Below are positions 22,966 to 29,375 of a stretch of DNA of 64,000 bases, one piece after another (the stretch's first letter is position 1; each line of letters opens with the position of its first letter). The translations under genes were made by a program, and so were the position numbers. The stretch spans positions 10,027,501-10,091,500 of the forward strand of contig NZ_CP086136.1 of NCBI RefSeq assembly GCF_017565645.3, written 5' to 3'. A model generated the notes under the pieces. That model searched no databases, was not told the origin of the DNA, and saw only the letters and a list, made by a program, of their open reading frames with translations. This stretch comes from Bradyrhizobium barranii subsp. barranii. Its GTDB lineage: Bacteria; Pseudomonadota; Alphaproteobacteria; Rhizobiales; Xanthobacteraceae.

Positions 22966-23748
22966 ATGAGCGAGCCGCCGGGGCCGGACACCTCCCGGTT
23001 GCAAAACGCGCGCCGTACGGCATGGTTAGGCCTGATGCCCGCCAAGACCGACCACGACAAGAGCAAGCCCGAAGACGCGCCGCACTATCACGGCCATCGC
23101 GAACGGCTGCGCGAGCGTTTCTACAGCGCGGGCGCGGATGCGCTCAGCGACTACGAGCTGTTGGAGATGGCGCTGTTTCCGGCGCTGCCGCGACGCGACA
23201 CCAAGCCGCTGGCGAAAACGCTGATCAAGATTTTCGGCTCGTTCGCCGAAGCCGTCCACGCACCGGTGGCACGCCTGCGCGAGGTCGACGGCATCGGCGA
23301 AGCCGCGATCCACCAGCTCAAGCTGATCGCCGCGGCAACGCACCGCGTCGCCAAGGGCGAGGTCAACAGCCGCAACGCGCTGTCGTCCTGGAACGAAGTG
23401 ATCGACTATTGCCGATCCAGCATGGCGTTTTCAGACAAGGAGCAATTCCGCCTGCTCTTCCTCGACAAGCGCAACCAGCTGATCGCCGACGAGGTGCAGC
23501 AGACCGGCACCGTCGACCACACCCCGGTCTATCCACGCGAGGTGATCAAGCGCGCGCTGGAGCTGTCGGCGACCGCGTTGATCCTGGTGCACAACCACCC
23601 CTCAGGCGATCCCTCGCCCTCGCAGGCCGACATCCAGATGACCAAGGCCATCATCGACATCGCAAAACCGCTCGGTATCGCCGTGCACGACCACATCATC
23701 GTCGGCAAACAAGGTCACGCCAGTCTGAAGGGACTGAAGCTGATCTAA
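22966..23748 (+). CDS. radC: RadC-family JAB1/MPN-domain protein
   Basis: A 260-residue protein with the RadC layout: helix-hairpin-helix region ([35 protein letters not shown]), then the MPN domain with the JAMM-like motif [14 protein letters not shown] near residue 209. The original link to recombination repair is doubtful in the literature and the true function is unsettled. The last 159 bp (from HNHPSG to the stop) occur a second time at 28401-28559, with downstream codons that are more GC-rich there than here. The present C-terminus may therefore be of foreign origin (see findings). Confidence 0.9.
23590..23748 (+). repeat. Repeat copy 1: radC 3' end
   Basis: A 159-bp segment aligned without gaps to 28401-28559. 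By eye 138 of 159 positions match. The first 73 bp differ at only one base; differences concentrate in the last 86 bp. The two copies bracket 4.65 kb holding the autotransporter locus. Confidence 0.8.
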
Positions 23749-24008
23749 ACGACGTCGCCTCTTGGGGGCTAAAGCGGACCTTACCGCGAACCTCGCAAAA
23801 CGACGCGATTGCCCCAGAGCAGTCATCAGTCCCGCTGGCAACTCGAGGTTGTCCAGAGAGCACGGCGTGGATCCGTTGGATCAGCATTGTTGTCCCATGC
23901 GTGACTCGTAAGCGACAGTGGTCGGGATAATGGATTGCTGCCGCGATCGCCACAGATGCGGCGTCTTCGCACAACAATTCTGGTGCTCGTTGCCTTTCGC
24001 GATCGCGT

Positions 24009-25853
24009 GTGATCGGGCGCAACAAAATGGAACTGCGCAAGCCTTTGCGATTACTTGCCGGTCAGGCGCCGCGTCGGCACCCTCTGCGAGCACGGGTGCT
24101 TTCCGTTGTTCTGCCTTGCGTGATTATCATCGCCGCACCGCAAGCGGCCCGCGCTCAATGTACAACTGATCCTGTCAACGGCGGCATCCTTCAGAACGGC
24201 GGAACCTGCGCAGCCAATAATCCGGTGAGCACCGGTTTCAACATCGCGGTCAGCGCGTTGAACGGCGCAAACGTGACGACCAATGGCACGGTGACGGCCA
24301 ATGGTGGTGGAACAGGAATACAGGCCACCACCAACGCCACGGTCACCGCAAACGCAAATGTAACCGCCGCCAGCACTGGCCTGATTGCGAACACCGGCGG
24401 CACGATCATCATTAATGCGATCACCCTGGCGAATTCTGGCGGCGGCGGCGCGGCCATGATCGCCACCACCGGCACGATCATCGCGAATAGCACGACTGTG
24501 AATTGGAACGGCGGCGCCGCGGTCGGGGTGGGCGGGGTAGTGCAGGCCACGGCGGGAGGTCTGATTCAATTCACACCTGGCTCGTCGATCAATCTCAGCG
24601 GTGGCTTCGGCAAGTTGATGACCGCCGACGGTGCGACAAGCCAAATCATCGCCAATGGTCTTTCCGTGAACATGGGGGCTTCGGGCGGCATGACCGCGGC
24701 TACGGCGCAGAACGGGGGGAGTATCCAGCTTGCGAGCGGCAGCAGCATCACGTTCGCCGGAGGCGGCGGGAATACCGGCTTATCGGCAACAGGGACCAAC
24801 AGTTCGATCACGGCGACCGATCTGAGCTTGTCGGTAGGTAATGGCGGTGGTGATGTCGGTGTGAACGCCGCGTCCGGGGGCCAGGTGACGTTGACGCGCG
24901 GCTCCGTTACCGTTCCGGGCATTGGCGGCGGGGAGATAGGACTTCGGGCGACGGGGGCGAACAGCCTGATTACCGCAAACGATGTGGTCGTCAGCGTGAC
25001 GGGAGGCGGTGGAAACGCTGGAGTGAATGCGACGACTGGCGGCACCGTTACGACGAGTGGTGGCTCGGTGTCCGTCGTCAACGGCGCGGGCGGGCTGCTG
25101 CAGAACGGCGGCAACGTAACCATGACCGGAACCGACGTGACCGCGTCAGGAAATGGCGGCTTCGGCTTTCTGTTCAACGGTAGCGGAAACACGTTGCAGT
25201 ACAGCAACGCCACCATCGTGGCCAGCGCCGCCTCCTTCTCGGTGCAGGGCGGCGCGGCCAACATCAGTCTTAGTAATGCCGTCGCAGTAACAAATAACAA
25301 CACCCTGCTCGAAACGGTGTCTGGAGCCAGCACGACGTTCAACGCACAGGCATCGACCTTGCGAGGGGTGATCACGACGGCGGCCGGCGGCATCAGCACA
25401 GTCACCCTTGCGCAGAATACCGTCTGGACGATGACGGGCAATTCGAACGCAACCAACCTGACCAACAACAGCAGTGAGATCATCTTCACCCCGCCGACCA
25501 CGGACCCCACACAACTGTCGAGCTACAAGACGCTGATTGCGAATAACTATGGGGGCGCAGGCGGCTCGATCACGCTCAATACTTTTCTCGGCAACGACAC
25601 TTCGCCATCCGACAGGCTGGTCATTAACGGCGGCGCAGCGACGGGCTCGACAACGCTAAGAGTATTGAACACGACCGGTCCCGGCGATCAGACCGTTGCG
25701 AACGGCATCCTTTTGGTGCAGACCGTCAACAACGCCACCACGGCGCCCGGCGCTTTCTCGCTCGCCGGCGAGGTGCGCGGCGGCGCTTATGATTACTTCC
25801 TGTTTCGCGGCGGCATTAACGGCAATGCGCCCCAGGATTGGTTCCTGCGCTAG
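24009..25853 (+). CDS. Autotransporter passenger domain, ended by an in-frame TAG
   Basis: 614 residues to the TAG at 25851. A long signal peptide (hydrophobic LSVVLPCVIIIAAPQAARA, cut before QCTTDP) leads into a Gly/Thr/Asn/Ser-rich passenger of repeated beta-helix rungs (for example VTTSGGSVSV, and GGGNTGLSATGTNSSITATD), ending in the usual junction (FRGGINGNAPQDWFLR). The same frame continues past the TAG through a proline-rich linker into the beta-barrel, so this is the front half of a roughly 980-residue type Va autotransporter. GTG 24009 or ATG 24027 could be the start; neither has a good ribosome-binding site. Without readthrough the passenger would have no translocator. Confidence 0.75.
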   Translation: MIGRNKMELRKPLRLLAGQAPRRHPLRARVLSVVLPCVIIIAAPQAARAQCTTDPVNGGILQNGGTCAANNPVSTGFNIAVSALNGANVTTNGTVTANGGGTGIQATTNATVTANANVTAASTGLIANTGGTIIINAITLANSGGGGAAMIATTGTIIANSTTVNWNGGAAVGVGGVVQATAGGLIQFTPGSSINLSGGFGKLMTADGATSQIIANGLSVNMGASGGMTAATAQNGGSIQLASGSSITFAGGGGNTGLSATGTNSSITATDLSLSVGNGGGDVGVNAASGGQVTLTRGSVTVPGIGGGEIGLRATGANSLITANDVVVSVTGGGGNAGVNATTGGTVTTSGGSVSVVNGAGGLLQNGGNVTMTGTDVTASGNGGFGFLFNGSGNTLQYSNATIVASAASFSVQGGAANISLSNAVAVTNNNTLLETVSGASTTFNAQASTLRGVITTAAGGISTVTLAQNTVWTMTGNSNATNLTNNSSEIIFTPPTTDPTQLSSYKTLIANNYGGAGGSITLNTFLGNDTSPSDRLVINGGAATGSTTLRVLNTTGPGDQTVANGILLVQTVNNATTAPGAFSLAGEVRGGAYDYFLFRGGINGNAPQDWFLR

Positions 25854-25997
25854 ACTTTCGATTCGGGGCCGACACCCCCGGACCCGCCGATTATCCCGCC
25901 GCCGATCCTGCCGCCCGATCCGCCGCCGGACGGCCTGCCGCCCGGCTCCTACCCAATCATCGGGCCTGGACTTGCAACCTACGGGTCCGTTCAACCT

Positions 25998-26951
25998 ATG
26001 GCCCGGCAAATCGGCCTCGCCACGCTTGGTACGCTCAACCAGCGAGTCGGCGACACGATGACATTGTTGAATGCGGGTGCCGCCCCCAATGGCTGGGGCC
26101 GGTCAGACTGGGCGCGCGTTTTCGGTCAGCAGATCAACGGCGACTACCAGGCCTTCGCCGACCCGCGCACCGATGGCTGGCTGGCGGGCTTCCAAGGCGG
26201 AATCGATCTCTGGCGCGGCAGCACCATCCCCGGTCACCGCGACTCTGCTGGACTTTACTTCGCCTATACCCAGGCGCGGGCCGACGTGACCGGGCTGGTC
26301 ACAAACCCGGCGGCCACTGGCTACATGCTCACCCGCACCGGGACCAACGACATCCAGGCTTACTCGGCCGGCGGCTACTGGACGCATTACGGTCCGACCG
26401 GCTGGTACCTCGACGCGATCCTGCAGGGGACGCTCTATCGCGGCAACGCGACGACGCAATTCACGCAATTGCCGCTCACGGGCGCCGGCTTCGTTGCTTC
26501 GCTGGAGACGGGCTATCCAATCCCGATGCCGCTTGGCCCAGGCTTCGTGCTCGAGCCACAGGCCCAGATCATCTGGCAACGGGTCTCGTTCGACGAAGCC
26601 AATGACGGTCTGGGCCCGGTCGGGCTGGGCACGACGTCGGGTCCGATCGGACGGCTCGGCCTGCGCGGGCAGTGGAATACCACGAGCAGCAACGGGATGC
26701 TCTGGCAGCCTTATGCAGGCGTCAATTACTGGCGCAGCTGGGGCGCGGGAGCGGACACCACTTTTGGCATCGATCAAGTGCTGCTGCTGCAGAAGATGCA
26801 GACGGTCGAAACCTTCGTCGGCTTCACCGGCAAGCTCGACAAGAGCTATAGCGTCTATGCTCAATTCGGTTATCAATTCGACGTCGGCAGCACGGTCAAC
26901 GCGGGCTCGCAAGGCGCCAAAGGCACCGCGGGCATACGCTACAGCTGGTGA
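25998..26951 (+). CDS. Autotransporter beta-barrel domain, separated from its passenger by one stop codon
   Basis: The frame is open from 25854 and in phase with the passenger. It opens with a proline-rich linker (DPPIIPPPILPPDPPP), then SYPIIGPGLATYG, and from Met 25998 runs through a complete autotransporter domain (WARVFGQQINGDYQAF, AGLYFAYTQARADV, SAGGYWTHYGPTGWYLD, QIIWQRVSFDEA), ending in the aromatic C-terminus GIRYSW recognised by the outer-membrane assembly machinery. No ribosome-binding site precedes Met 25998, so independent translation is doubtful. With TAG read as a serine codon (TCG) the whole locus 24009-26951 would be one gene. Confidence 0.75.
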   Translation: MARQIGLATLGTLNQRVGDTMTLLNAGAAPNGWGRSDWARVFGQQINGDYQAFADPRTDGWLAGFQGGIDLWRGSTIPGHRDSAGLYFAYTQARADVTGLVTNPAATGYMLTRTGTNDIQAYSAGGYWTHYGPTGWYLDAILQGTLYRGNATTQFTQLPLTGAGFVASLETGYPIPMPLGPGFVLEPQAQIIWQRVSFDEANDGLGPVGLGTTSGPIGRLGLRGQWNTTSSNGMLWQPYAGVNYWRSWGAGADTTFGIDQVLLLQKMQTVETFVGFTGKLDKSYSVYAQFGYQFDVGSTVNAGSQGAKGTAGIRYSW

Positions 26952-27133
26952 ATAGGGTTTCATCAAGCTGCTTGCGATCTCTACGCGCAGCGAGGCCCGC
27001 ATTCCGCGGCCTGCCGTATACACTATGTGCATGTCCGGATGCGGCCCTGTTTGGCCGCTTCCATGCGGCCGTCTTCGCTTGGTCACCAATGCCCCGGATT
27101 GGCAGCCTACAACGCGCCGATCGCCTCGGCTAA

Positions 27134-27208
27134 AGCATGATCCGGAAAAGTGCGCAGCGGTTTTCCCTCGCGACAAACGCGGAGCGCGTTTGCGCGGAGA
27201 TCATGCTC
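27134..27208. repeat. 75-bp rhizobial inverted repeat, copy A
   Basis: Ends AGCATGATCC and GATCATGCTC are inverted; the core carries CTCGCGACAAACGCGGAGCG. Nearly identical, in opposite orientation, to 56465-56540. It is an intergenic mobile-looking repeat without coding capacity. Confidence 0.75.
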
Positions 27209-27217
27209 AAACAACAA

Positions 27218-27262
27218 CCTAAAGCGCGATGACGATTCATCCCAATCTCATCGCGCTTTAGG
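27218..27262. repeat. Perfect 15-bp inverted repeat
   Basis: CCTAAAGCGCGATGA at 27218-27232 and its complement at 27248-27262, with a 15-nt loop. Directly follows repeat copy A. This is a second rhizobial palindrome type. Confidence 0.75.
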
Positions 27263-27365
27263 CAAGATGACTGGCCAGCCGGAAGGTCTCTCAGCGAGCT
27301 CGGCAGGGCGGGCCGATGATCACTTCCTTACGGCAGCGACCCTCTAAGGTCCGCGACACCAAAAT

Positions 27366-27557
27366 CTACCGTGGCTCCGCCACCGTTCTCAGAAGTCGTC
27401 TGGGTGCGGCCTCGCTGTGCGCTGACACAGCGATGACCCGGTCGCCTTTCTTCTCCGCCAGTCCGACATTTCGAGCGAGGATCGCGCCAAGCAAAAGCAT
27501 CGTGACCATCAGCCCGCTCACGGACGCAGTCACATAAACATTGGACCAATTGCGCAT
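27366..27557 (-). CDS. Small predicted membrane protein
   Basis: A 63-residue frame from ATG 27557 (MRNWSNVYVTASVSGLMVTMLLLGAILARN cut here at its helix parts: NVYVTASVSG, LMVTMLLLGAIL). One transmembrane helix, then a basic tail ending RRLLRTVAEPR. GGTGTAGTG precedes the start, a moderate ribosome-binding site. No family recognised. It lies inside the segment bracketed by the radC duplicates. Confidence 0.35.
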   Translation of the reverse strand: MRNWSNVYVTASVSGLMVTMLLLGAILARNVGLAEKKGDRVIAVSAHSEAAPRRLLRTVAEPR

Positions 27558-27599
27558 CACTACACCACCCATGCGCACCGCCCCGGCCCGATGCAACAT

Positions 27600-28400
27600 G
27601 CGTCGTTGAGTCGTTAGGCGATTTGGTGGCGCGGCAGTGGCGTTCTGGAGTTCACCTCACTTGTTACGCGGTGGCGGCCACTCGTTGCAGGTTCGTGGCG
27701 AGCGGATTGCTTTGAGCAGCCTTTCCTGTGGACCGCCGCACTTCCATCACAGGAGGCAGCATGGACTCAGGCATACTCCGAAATTGCGCGGCTTGCTCTC
27801 CCGGCCGCGCGGATCTGGCCTGGAGCCCCGGCTGGTACGGTCGGGGCTCTCTTTGGAGCGGCTCTCTGAGACCGTTCAGCTTGGCCTCGGACGGCGGTCT
27901 TCGTGCTGCCAGTCGCCTAAGCGACTAACCCGATCACTAGCTCCGTCAGAACTGCTGACTTTGCTATCCGCTTCCGGGATTTCAGCGCCGTTCGTCTGGA
28001 TCAGAAATAGCTGTTTCTGCATCTCGACGAGGCGCGCGCGGCTATATTGCCACCGGATAAAGCCGCAGCCGCGCCGTGCTAATTGTTGCGCGCAGCTCAA
28101 ATGACGACAATTCCGGGCTGCATCGTGCGCGTCGGACTGAAGCATCACTTGCGCTGATCTGTTTACGGCGACTTCCGCTTCTGGCCCGTCTCGGACCTCA
28201 CGACGCCGAAGCAGAATGCCCGCCACTGAGGTGAGAGCTGAAGTCCGCTGATGGTCCCTGGTGAGTGAAATGGCTTATAAAGGCGCTTCCACGTGTTAAC
28301 GTGATCATCACGAACGATCACTGCTTACAGTCCCCTGCTACTACCCCACCTAAAAAATCTATTGTGTGTTCAACGCATTACGTGAAGCGATAGATTCATC
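27600..28400. other. Gene-poor stretch inside the radC-bracketed segment
   Basis: About 800 bp with no coding region I can defend. A 55-residue frame at 27761-27928 has a strong AGGAGG site 4 nt before its ATG, but the protein (MDSGILRNCAACSPGRADL and onward) is not recognisable. A GC stem, GAGCCCCG / CGGGGCTC, lies near 27820-27850. The last 140 bp before the radC fragment are AT-rich (CCTAAAAAATCTATTGTG near 28350). No integrase or transposase remnant was recognised. Confidence 0.4.
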
Positions 28401-28559
28401 CACAACCACCCCTCGGGCGATCCCTCGCCCTCGCAGGCCGACATCCAGATGACCAAGGCCATCATCGACATCGCCAAGCCGCTCGGCATCGCGGTGCACG
28501 ACCACGTCATCGTCGGCAGAAACGGCCATGCCAGCCTGCGCGGGATGCGGTTGATCTAG
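28401..28559 (+). pseudogene. radC': radC 3' fragment (displaced end)
   Basis: Encodes the last 53 codons of RadC without its front: [48 protein letters not shown], stop TAG. Starts abruptly at the JAMM motif. Codon third positions are strongly GC (GCC AAG, GGC, AGC, CGG), like the neighbouring core genes and unlike the current radC tail (GCA AAA, GGT, AGT, AAG). It is most simply the original chromosomal end of radC, cut off by insertion of 23749-28400. Confidence 0.8.
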
Positions 28560-28586: not shown

Positions 28587-29375
28587 ATGAGCGACTGGCT
28601 GCACAATCTGCCGGTGCCTGCAATGGCGCTGGTGATCTTTGGATTCACGTACCTGCTCGCCGCGGCCATCTTCGCAGGCATCGCGAGGGCTGCGACGGAG
28701 GAGCGCGCGAAGTCGCTGAAGGCGATCTCGCCGGGCATGCTGCCGGTGCTCGGCATCATCTTCGGCCTGTTCGTCGCCTTCATCGCCGCGCAGGTTTGGG
28801 GCGACAGCGACCGCGCCAGCGCCGCGGTGAGCCGCGAGGCCAGTGCGCTGCGCAGCGCCGTGCTGCTGGCCGCCGGCCTGCCGGCGGAGCAGGAGACGAA
28901 GCTGCGCGGCCTGGTGCGCGACTATGTCGGGCAGGCCGTCGCGGTGGAATGGCCGATGATGGCGCATCAGGAGGTGTCGCTGAAGGTCACGCCGCCGGCG
29001 CTCGCCGAAGCCCTGCAGTTCGTCGTTGCGATGACGCCGCAAGGCCCCGGGCAGGCGAATGTACAGCGCGAGCTCATCGCCGCGCTGGAGCAGGCCCTGG
29101 ATGCGCGGCGGCAGCGGATCATCGTCAGCCTCGCCGCGGTGAACCCGGTCAAATGGTGGTGCCTGTACCTCCAGGCGGCCTGCGCGCTGCTGGTGATCGG
29201 CCTCGTTCATTGCGACAACCGGCTGGGATCGGCGATCGCGATGGGCCTGTTCGCCACCGGCGTCGCCACCTCCGTCCTGCTCATCGCTGCGCACGACCGG
29301 CCGTTCGCCGGCCAGATCTCGATCCAGCCGGAGCCGCTGCTCCAGATCATGCCGGCAGACCCCGGCAAGAGTTGA
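28587..29375 (+). CDS. DUF4239/bestrophin-like membrane protein
   Basis: 262 residues. Two N-terminal helices (MALVIFGFTYLLAAAIFAGI, PVLGIIFGLFVAFIAAQVW), a helical soluble middle (SREASALRSAVLLAAGLP, LRGLVRDYVGQ) and two C-terminal helices (WWCLYLQAACALLVIGLV, IAMGLFATGVATSVLLI). This is the pattern of the DUF4239 family. Function unknown, perhaps channel-like. It follows the displaced radC end by 27 bp, which suggests it was the original neighbour of radC. Confidence 0.7.
   Translation: MSDWLHNLPVPAMALVIFGFTYLLAAAIFAGIARAATEERAKSLKAISPGMLPVLGIIFGLFVAFIAAQVWGDSDRASAAVSREASALRSAVLLAAGLPAEQETKLRGLVRDYVGQAVAVEWPMMAHQEVSLKVTPPALAEALQFVVAMTPQGPGQANVQRELIAALEQALDARRQRIIVSLAAVNPVKWWCLYLQAACALLVIGLVHCDNRLGSAIAMGLFATGVATSVLLIAAHDRPFAGQISIQPEPLLQIMPADPGKS

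What the first reader, a model, noticed from the sequence alone, without database searches (positions are those of the whole stretch)
23590..28559. The radC 3' end is duplicated around a 4.65-kb segment: likely site-specific insertion scar
Bases 23590-23748 (last 53 codons of radC) recur at 28401-28559 with no gaps, about 138 of 159 positions equal. The first 73 bp, at the JAMM motif, differ at one base; the rest diverges. The distal copy has the GC-rich codons of the core genes and leads straight into a core-like gene at 28587; the copy now ending radC has more AT-ending codons. That is what is expected if an element carrying a replacement 3' end recombined at the HNHPSGD-coding sequence. The segment holds an autotransporter, a small membrane protein and repeats, but no recognisable integrase, so the element is either decayed or was mobilised in trans. 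Use of the radC JAMM codons as an attachment core would be unusual.
Basis: partly seen in the sequence, partly recalled or inferred. Interest (0 to 1): 0.8.

Follow-up and report, generated by a model that had tools for sequence, protein, structure and literature searches.

The report
Leftover mobile-element segment inside radC
A 4.8-kb piece of DNA next to the radC gene of this Bradyrhizobium looks like the stranded remnant of mobile elements that insert at one exact spot inside radC, and related bacteria show intact elements and rows of similar remnants at the same spot.

Summary
In detail: 23590-23748 and 28401-28559 match at 138 of 159 positions. In the same-species strain B. barranii subsp. 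apii 1S5, radC is cut at exactly this point (CACAACCACCCC, the HNHP codons). A 413-aa tyrosine integrase starts 214 bp further on, at the edge of a 132.6-kb island. Beyond the island's other end lies the window's own autotransporter segment at 98-99% identity. The same integrase beside a cut radC occurs in 20 of 195 Bradyrhizobium genomes. Relatives without an insertion have radC running into the bestrophin-like gene, as predicted. The window segment keeps an island-type right end but no integrase. It fits a CIME-like remnant (cis-mobilizable element) that brought, or was repaired with, a replacement radC 3' end. Similar integrase-less segments, up to three in a row, sit at radC elsewhere. radC is already a reported target of ICEs/IMEs in Mesorhizobium and of Tn554-type transposons in Firmicutes; what looks new is the replacement-tail segments and their rows. 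How the first segment acquired its radC tail is not shown.

The parts
22966..23589 (+). radC 5' part (host side of the insertion point)
   Evidence: RadC family, PF04002 and TIGR00608 on the ORF 22966-23748
23590..23601 (+). left attachment core CACAACCACCCC (HNHP codons of the JAMM motif; motif name recalled)
   Evidence: same position where radC is cut before the integrase in relatives
23590..23748 (+). replacement radC 3' end (53 codons with stop) now completing radC
   Evidence: 138/159 to the distal copy; less like the six tested empty-site or near-empty loci than the distal copy, 6 of 6
23749..23811 (+). conserved left-end stretch just after the replacement tail
   Evidence: shared with other radC loci L039, L153, L157, L159, L145, L162; one match for 23749-23870 in the own genome
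24009..25853 (+). autotransporter passenger ORF, ends at in-frame TAG (cargo, broken gene)
   Evidence: PF18883 autochaperone; 98-99% identical segment in 1S5
25998..26951 (+). autotransporter beta-barrel ORF (cargo)
   Evidence: PF03797, TIGR01414
27366..27599 (-). small ORF, membrane protein by its look; no Pfam family (cargo)
   Evidence: 27327-27655 matches at 76-78% in at least 7 other genomes of a capped list
28228..28373 (+). right-end stretch shared with other radC segments (78-82%)
   Evidence: L039, L153, L157, L159
28297..28335 (+). island-type right-arm sequence, about 100 bp before the right core
   Evidence: best hit in 64 kb, E=3.7e-5, of a profile from 8 right ends of integrase-bearing islands (window not used); next hit elsewhere E=0.043
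28401..28412 (+). right attachment core CACAACCACCCC
   Evidence: homology to radC begins here
28401..28559 (+). displaced original radC 3' end
   Evidence: closer to the six tested loci than the present tail, 6 of 6
28587..29375 (+). bestrophin-like gene, ancestral right neighbour of radC
   Evidence: PF14023; directly after radC in empty-site relatives

Best explanation
The segment 23590-28400 is a CIME-like remnant (cis-mobilizable element without integrase) at the chromosomal attachment site of a family of radC-specific tyrosine-integrase ICEs. Shown by sequence: islands with this integrase sit at CACAACCACCCC inside radC and cut RadC at its HNHP codons; the window segment starts and ends at that core and keeps the island-type right end. 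Shown in the sister strain: a 132.6-kb ICE-like island sits between radC and the same segment. Inferred: the segment entered as part of such a composite or by an integrase acting in trans; when the ICE left or was absent, the segment's own radC tail restored a complete RadC and the old tail ended up 4.8 kb away. Also inferred: the tail came into the element when the left end of an earlier ICE was replaced by radC-bearing DNA. The segment is now probably immobile, since its genome has no close relative of the integrase.
For: Cut radC followed by integrase: 20 of the 25 genomes that hold the integrase among 195 (coordinates; 18 read directly; G021 and G071, and G021 also). Integrase domains Arm-DNA-bind_3 + Phage_integrase. 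Sister strain 1S5: island core to core 132593 bp, then the window's segment. VirB4-type match inside the island in 6 of 8 genomes tested, at 22-27 bits against a cut-off of 21. Right-arm profile hits the window and in all 18 of 31 segments: 14 of 17 with a complete right core against 3 of 13 without, one duplicate genome dropped, Fisher p=0.0024, or 0.0029 without the window (related segments treated as independent). The island lies on the radC side of a segment in 1S5, G123, G188 and G066 (G123 and G188 if their chromosomes are circular). A decayed C-terminal piece of this integrase lies 131 bp after a restored tail in L152. Empty sites and tail comparison. No relative of the integrase in G000 at E<=1e-60.
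Against: The left end has no ICE left arm (no GATCACG in 23590-24000; present in 13 of 14 cut radC genomes) and no integrase trace, so it is not a plain ICE deletion product. The tails follow the host about as well as the cargo: L039-L153 radC 5' 82%, tail 86%, cargo 94%, so co-transfer of tail and cargo is not proved; tails look mosaic. Only one of four segment families (GMC) shows clear discord between cargo and host, and all of it rests on one discordant host, L153/G020. 3 of 18 segments with a complete right core lack the right arm (L042, L146, L148). The profile score for the window is modest, and VirB4 matches are weak. G066 and G123 islands gave no VirB4 match. No excision or transfer was observed.
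Confidence: 0.8

Rival explanations
1. Replacement by recombination only: radC DNA from another strain, carrying its tail and neighbouring genes, recombined with radC on the left and joined by chance inside an integrated ICE on the right, repairing radC and leaving the ICE's right end as the scar. The segment itself then never moved as a unit.
For: Explains the radC tail, the missing left arm and the retained right arm in one event; L152 has a restored tail followed by a broken integrase C-terminus; mosaic tails.
Against: The same GMC segment (94-95%) sits in hosts whose radC 5' parts differ by 16-18% (L153 against L039, L157, L159), so at least one segment has moved between lineages; rows of up to three need repeated events.
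Confidence: 0.35
2. Autonomous small element that once had its own integrase and lost it; the ICEs merely share the site.
For: A replacement 3' end is typical of elements that insert in genes (established knowledge, recalled); the left ends of several segments share 23749-23811.
Against: None of 31 segments holds a relative of the radC integrases except the remnant in L152 (only this integrase family was searched there); right ends match island right ends.
Confidence: 0.12
3. Remnant of a tandem duplication of radC.
For: Two partial copies in the same orientation.
Against: In the 19 distal copies listed the homology stops at or within a few bases of the core on the upstream side; the window's copies differ by 21 of 159; empty-site relatives have one copy and the distal type of tail.
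Confidence: 0.02

Closest known systems
CIMEs and ICE-CIME accretion (definition in PMC5704250, passages read; the primary papers it cites were not seen)
   Same: Segment without integration and transfer genes, bounded by the attachment core, standing in tandem with a related ICE at one gene (1S5, G123, G188, G066).
   Different: Here the left boundary carries a radC 3' end instead of the ICE left end, the site lies 53 codons (with stop) before the gene's end at catalytic codons, and rows of segments occur. Mobilisation not shown.
Mesorhizobium ICEs and IMEs located at radC (PMC8627217, passages read)
   Same: ICEs lacking symbiosis genes and IMEs reported adjacent to radC.
   Different: The passages read give no core position, no effect on RadC and no integrase-less replacement-tail segments; its supplementary tables were not available.
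Tn554 and other radC-inserting transposons and islands of Firmicutes (PMC3261861, PMC11769447, PMC6008420, passages read)
   Same: Site-specific insertion inside radC; PMC11769447 calls radC a frequent integration site for transposons.
   Different: Transposon type and target sequence given there (hexanucleotides at the Tn554 ends) are not the core seen here; no replacement radC end is described in the passages read. Position within radC was not compared.
Bradyrhizobium symbiosis ICEs at tRNA genes and ybgC (PMC9239051, PMC9174649, passages read)
   Same: Large conjugative islands with border integrase; polypartite forms rearrange the chromosome.
   Different: Other attachment sites; neither paper is among the four that hold 'radC' in the term search.
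Integron cassette arrays (recalled, no call)
   Same: Rows of small gene units without their own recombinase, each ending in a shared site.
   Different: The shared site is a piece of radC, not attI/attC; the integrase has an arm-binding domain.

Membership tests
CIME (cis-mobilizable element) | No integration or transfer genes | tested here: met
   No relative of the radC integrase in the segment; Pfam on four segment ORFs gives autotransporter domains for two and nothing for two. Smaller ORFs were not scanned.
CIME (cis-mobilizable element) | Keeps the attR of an ICE family | tested here: met
   Core at 28401 and island-type right arm at 28297-28335.
CIME (cis-mobilizable element) | Keeps the attL of an ICE family | tested here: inconclusive
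   Core present at 23590, but the ICE left arm (GATCACG within 75 bases of the core in 13 of 14 cut radC genomes) is absent from 23590-24000; a radC tail stands in its place.
CIME (cis-mobilizable element) | Stands in tandem with a related ICE (accretion) | tested here: met
   Not in this genome, but in the same-species strain 1S5 with the same segment and in G123, G188, G066.
CIME (cis-mobilizable element) | Moves when the ICE moves | not testable with these tools
   Needs a mating or excision assay.
ICE (the window segment itself) | Own integrase and conjugation genes | tested here: not met
   No integrase relative and no such Pfam domain found.
ICE (radC islands in relatives) | Integrase at one end, core at both ends, type IV secretion gene | tested here: met
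   In 6 of 8 genomes tested (G178, G189, G005, G188, G106, G183) integrase, right-hand copy and a VirB4 match inside; not in G066 and G123, which gave no VirB4 match inside. G183's left core was seen only by protein match.
Integron cassette array | attC sites and IntI integrase | not tested
   No attC or IntI model was run.

The most novel reading that the evidence does not exclude
radC in Bradyrhizobium is the landing point of a cassette system: small gene units, each tagged with a radC 3' end that keeps RadC whole, are collected in rows and moved between species by the integrase of passing radC-specific ICEs. Full-size ICEs knock RadC out by cutting its catalytic motif, and a tail-bearing unit is what remains, with RadC restored, when the ICE leaves.
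Probability: 0.3. Interest if true: 0.75.

Novelty: new variant of a known kind. Interest (0 to 1): 0.5.

Why it matters
It pins a recurrent ICE attachment site to the catalytic codons of a conserved but poorly understood gene, with an integrase family next to cut radC in four other families of the order in our sample. It points to natural strains in which RadC has lost its catalytic end, useful for asking what RadC does. The rows of integrase-less segments offer a testable case of how ICE passage deposits small sets of accessory genes in soil bacteria.

Tried and rejected
Tandem radC duplication: rejected. tRNA or tmRNA target: none in the window. 73-bp attachment core: rejected, because the sister strain's tail differs in that stretch only and integrase-bearing loci share only about 12-24 bp. 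The idea that 23749-23811 is a dispersed repeat: rejected, single copy in the own genome. The stretch 27128-27262, by contrast, is a genus-wide repeat and says nothing about the insertion. The islands' HTH_17 gene: no significant match in the window. Tail comparison as proof of co-transfer: not conclusive. Movement from cargo/host comparison: clear only for the GMC family; the pairs of the other three families gave cargo and host identities within about 5 points. Two radC 5' values for L150 were wrong because the wrong stretch was taken; one search replaces them. The tail tally wrongly included L077, whose radC is cut; one search repeats it without. A BLAST of ORFs from 30 own-genome integrase loci plus the L077 integrase against the 80 named loci and the window found only L077 itself; that screen was narrow.

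Literature: six searches. Besides the papers cited above I looked at 'radC' passages in PMC3414803 (a RIT element inserted in a radC gene of a Tn4371-like ICE), PMC3864950, PMC2789088 and PMC3084294 (radC as a gene, not as a site), and PMC8407400 (no occurrence in the main text). Not opened from the listing: PMC6884506, PMC13182975, PMC12458937; PMC2864759, PMC6192313, PMC3696898.

Full report
Observation. The last 53 codons (with stop) of radC, 23590-23748, recur at 28401-28559 without gaps, 138 of 159 bases equal. The differences are at position 15 and from position 75 on. Two copies are found in the 11.4-Mb assembly. The segment between them has a GC of 0.615 against 0.655-0.693 on either side. 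It holds an autotransporter whose passenger and beta-barrel parts are separated by an in-frame stop, a small ORF that looks like a membrane protein, and a genus-wide repeat. The gene after the distal copy is bestrophin-like.

Empty sites. In 6 of 80 radC runs after about 30 bp into the bestrophin-like gene: L033, L037, L041, L060, L065 and L071 (L071's bestrophin match is in two pieces). I aligned the window's joined flanks with L033, L037, L041, L060, L065 and L036 (L071 left out; L036, which has only a fragment of the bestrophin gene, included). Five align with 599-623 of 685-686 equal and 1-3 gaps; L036 gives 530 of 671 with 31 gaps. At tail positions 74-159 all six are closer to the distal copy (73-77 of 86) than to the present radC end (63-68 of 86). 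Of the proximal tails in 79 named loci (L077, cut, left out), 59 are closer to the distal copy, 19 to the present one and 1 ties. The distal copy is therefore most simply the displaced original, and the present radC end the foreign one.

The integrase. In L077 (NZ_CP096255.1, B. barranii subsp. apii 1S5; the genome tool counts this genome as same species as the window) radC stops at the HNHP codons. After CACAACCACCCC comes non-radC DNA, and 214 bp after the last matched radC base begins a 413-aa integrase with an arm-binding domain and a Phage_integrase domain. The radC 3' end lies 132593 bp away, followed by the window's autotransporter segment at 98-99% identity, which is interrupted there by a transposase gene. 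The further distal copy in 1S5 is reduced to its last 53 positions.

How common. The integrase occurs at E<=1e-60 in 25 of 195 Bradyrhizobium genomes. In 20 of the 25 it starts about 170-215 bp after a cut radC: 18 read directly, G021 and G071 by coordinates and pattern (G021). In the other five (G103, G028, G080, G107, G004) no such neighbour was established; four of these matches are partial and G103's lies on another contig than radC. A pattern for the cut junction matches 17 of 195 genomes, with none for the reversed control; 16 of the 17 are among the 20, and G127's match lies at a contig end without an integrase match. In 397 genomes of the order, 10 hold the integrase; of the 11 fetched integrase loci 8 have a cut radC upstream, seven of them outside Bradyrhizobium, in four families; L189, L193 and L194 do not. 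VirB4-type matches lie inside the island in 6 of 8 genomes tested, weak but over the family's cut-off (22-27 bits against 21), so most of these islands are ICE-like. Core-to-core lengths range from 69 to 224 kb in those 8 genomes, two of them counted across the chromosome origin on the assumption of circularity.

The right end. I built a profile from 8 distinct right ends of integrase-bearing islands (10 collected, 2 near-identical dropped), without the window. In the 64-kb window it has one hit below 0.04, at 28297-28335, about 100 bp before the right core (E=3.7e-5; next 0.043). The window's right end therefore very probably belongs to the same family.

Other segments. Between radC tails in the named loci and in fetched stretches I found 31 segments of 0.6-8.2 kb, the window's included. 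Fourteen of the 80 named loci have one or more by this test; L023 and L031 keep shorter remnants. L071 and L161 rest on short distal matches of 65% and 73%, and L071 was also counted above as an empty site, so these two may not be real. The fetched stretches were chosen because they had several copies or an integrase, so they give no frequency. L057 and L158 are the same sequence, and L100 and L101 nearly so. G084 has three segments in a row, G162 and L092 two. None holds a relative of the radC integrase except a two-piece C-terminal fragment in L152, 131 bp after a restored tail. In 18 of 31 the right-arm profile hits, in 17 of these near the right end; L161's hit lies about 1 kb inside. With one duplicate (L158) dropped, 14 of 17 segments with a complete right core have the arm and 3 of 13 without do (p=0.0024; some segments are related, so the test overstates independence). 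The cargo that I scanned is ordinary accessory genes: a GMC oxidoreductase, a peptide ABC transporter, alpha/beta hydrolases, regulators, a guanylate-cyclase sensor, and several proteins without a Pfam family (20 ORFs of the segments scanned). The GMC segment is 94-95% identical between L153 and L039, L157, L159, while their radC 5' parts are 82-84% identical. This is the clearest sign of movement between lineages; the other families do not discriminate.

Mechanism. Shown: islands with a radC-linked integrase family at the HNHP codons, and such an island on the radC side of a segment in 1S5, G123, G188 and G066. Inferred: ICE and segment can move together, and when the ICE leaves, the segment remains with its own radC tail. 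How the first segment acquired a radC tail is unknown. Replacement of an ICE's left end by radC-bearing DNA would explain L152 and the missing left arms, and is kept as a rival. The window's genome has no relative of the integrase at E<=1e-60, so the segment is probably stranded.

What is known. Definitions of CIMEs and accretion are in PMC5704250 (passages). ICEs and IMEs at radC are reported for Mesorhizobium in PMC8627217 (passages). In Firmicutes Tn554 and other transposons and an island insert in radC (PMC3261861, PMC11769447, PMC6008420; passages). Bradyrhizobium symbiosis ICEs use tRNA genes and ybgC (PMC9239051, PMC9174649; passages). I found no report of this position at the HNHP codons, of replacement-tail segments or of their rows (searches; some listed papers not opened); most subscription papers are not in that library.

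Noticed in passing
window 27128-27262: A stretch of about 133 bp that recurs at 84-97% identity in very many Bradyrhizobium genomes (capped list): a dispersed genus-wide repeat.
   Followed up: no
window 25851-25853: In-frame stop between autotransporter passenger and barrel; the sister strain's copy is broken differently, by a transposase gene (DDE_Tnp_1_4, L143:2608-3951). The cargo is decaying in both.
   Followed up: partly
G172 (L174, L175) and G064 (L180, L181): The two halves of radC lie megabases apart on opposite strands of one contig, as expected of an inversion or a polypartite element using radC as one site.
   Followed up: no
G549 (L191, L194): Two radC-type integrase genes 36.7 kb apart on the same strand; only the first has radC upstream: possible tandem of two such elements.
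   Followed up: no
L189 (G324): Integrase preceded by the core but by no radC gene within the fetched stretch: maybe the inner border of a tandem.
   Followed up: no
L143:330-692; L165, L175, L150: A HTH_17 gene or its relative ends 110-150 bp before the right core in four islands (1S5, G106, G172, G066); in L167 a relative lies 3.4 kb away; L145 and L169 gave no significant match. The L024 segment keeps a weak match (E=1.8e-6) at its right end.
   Followed up: partly
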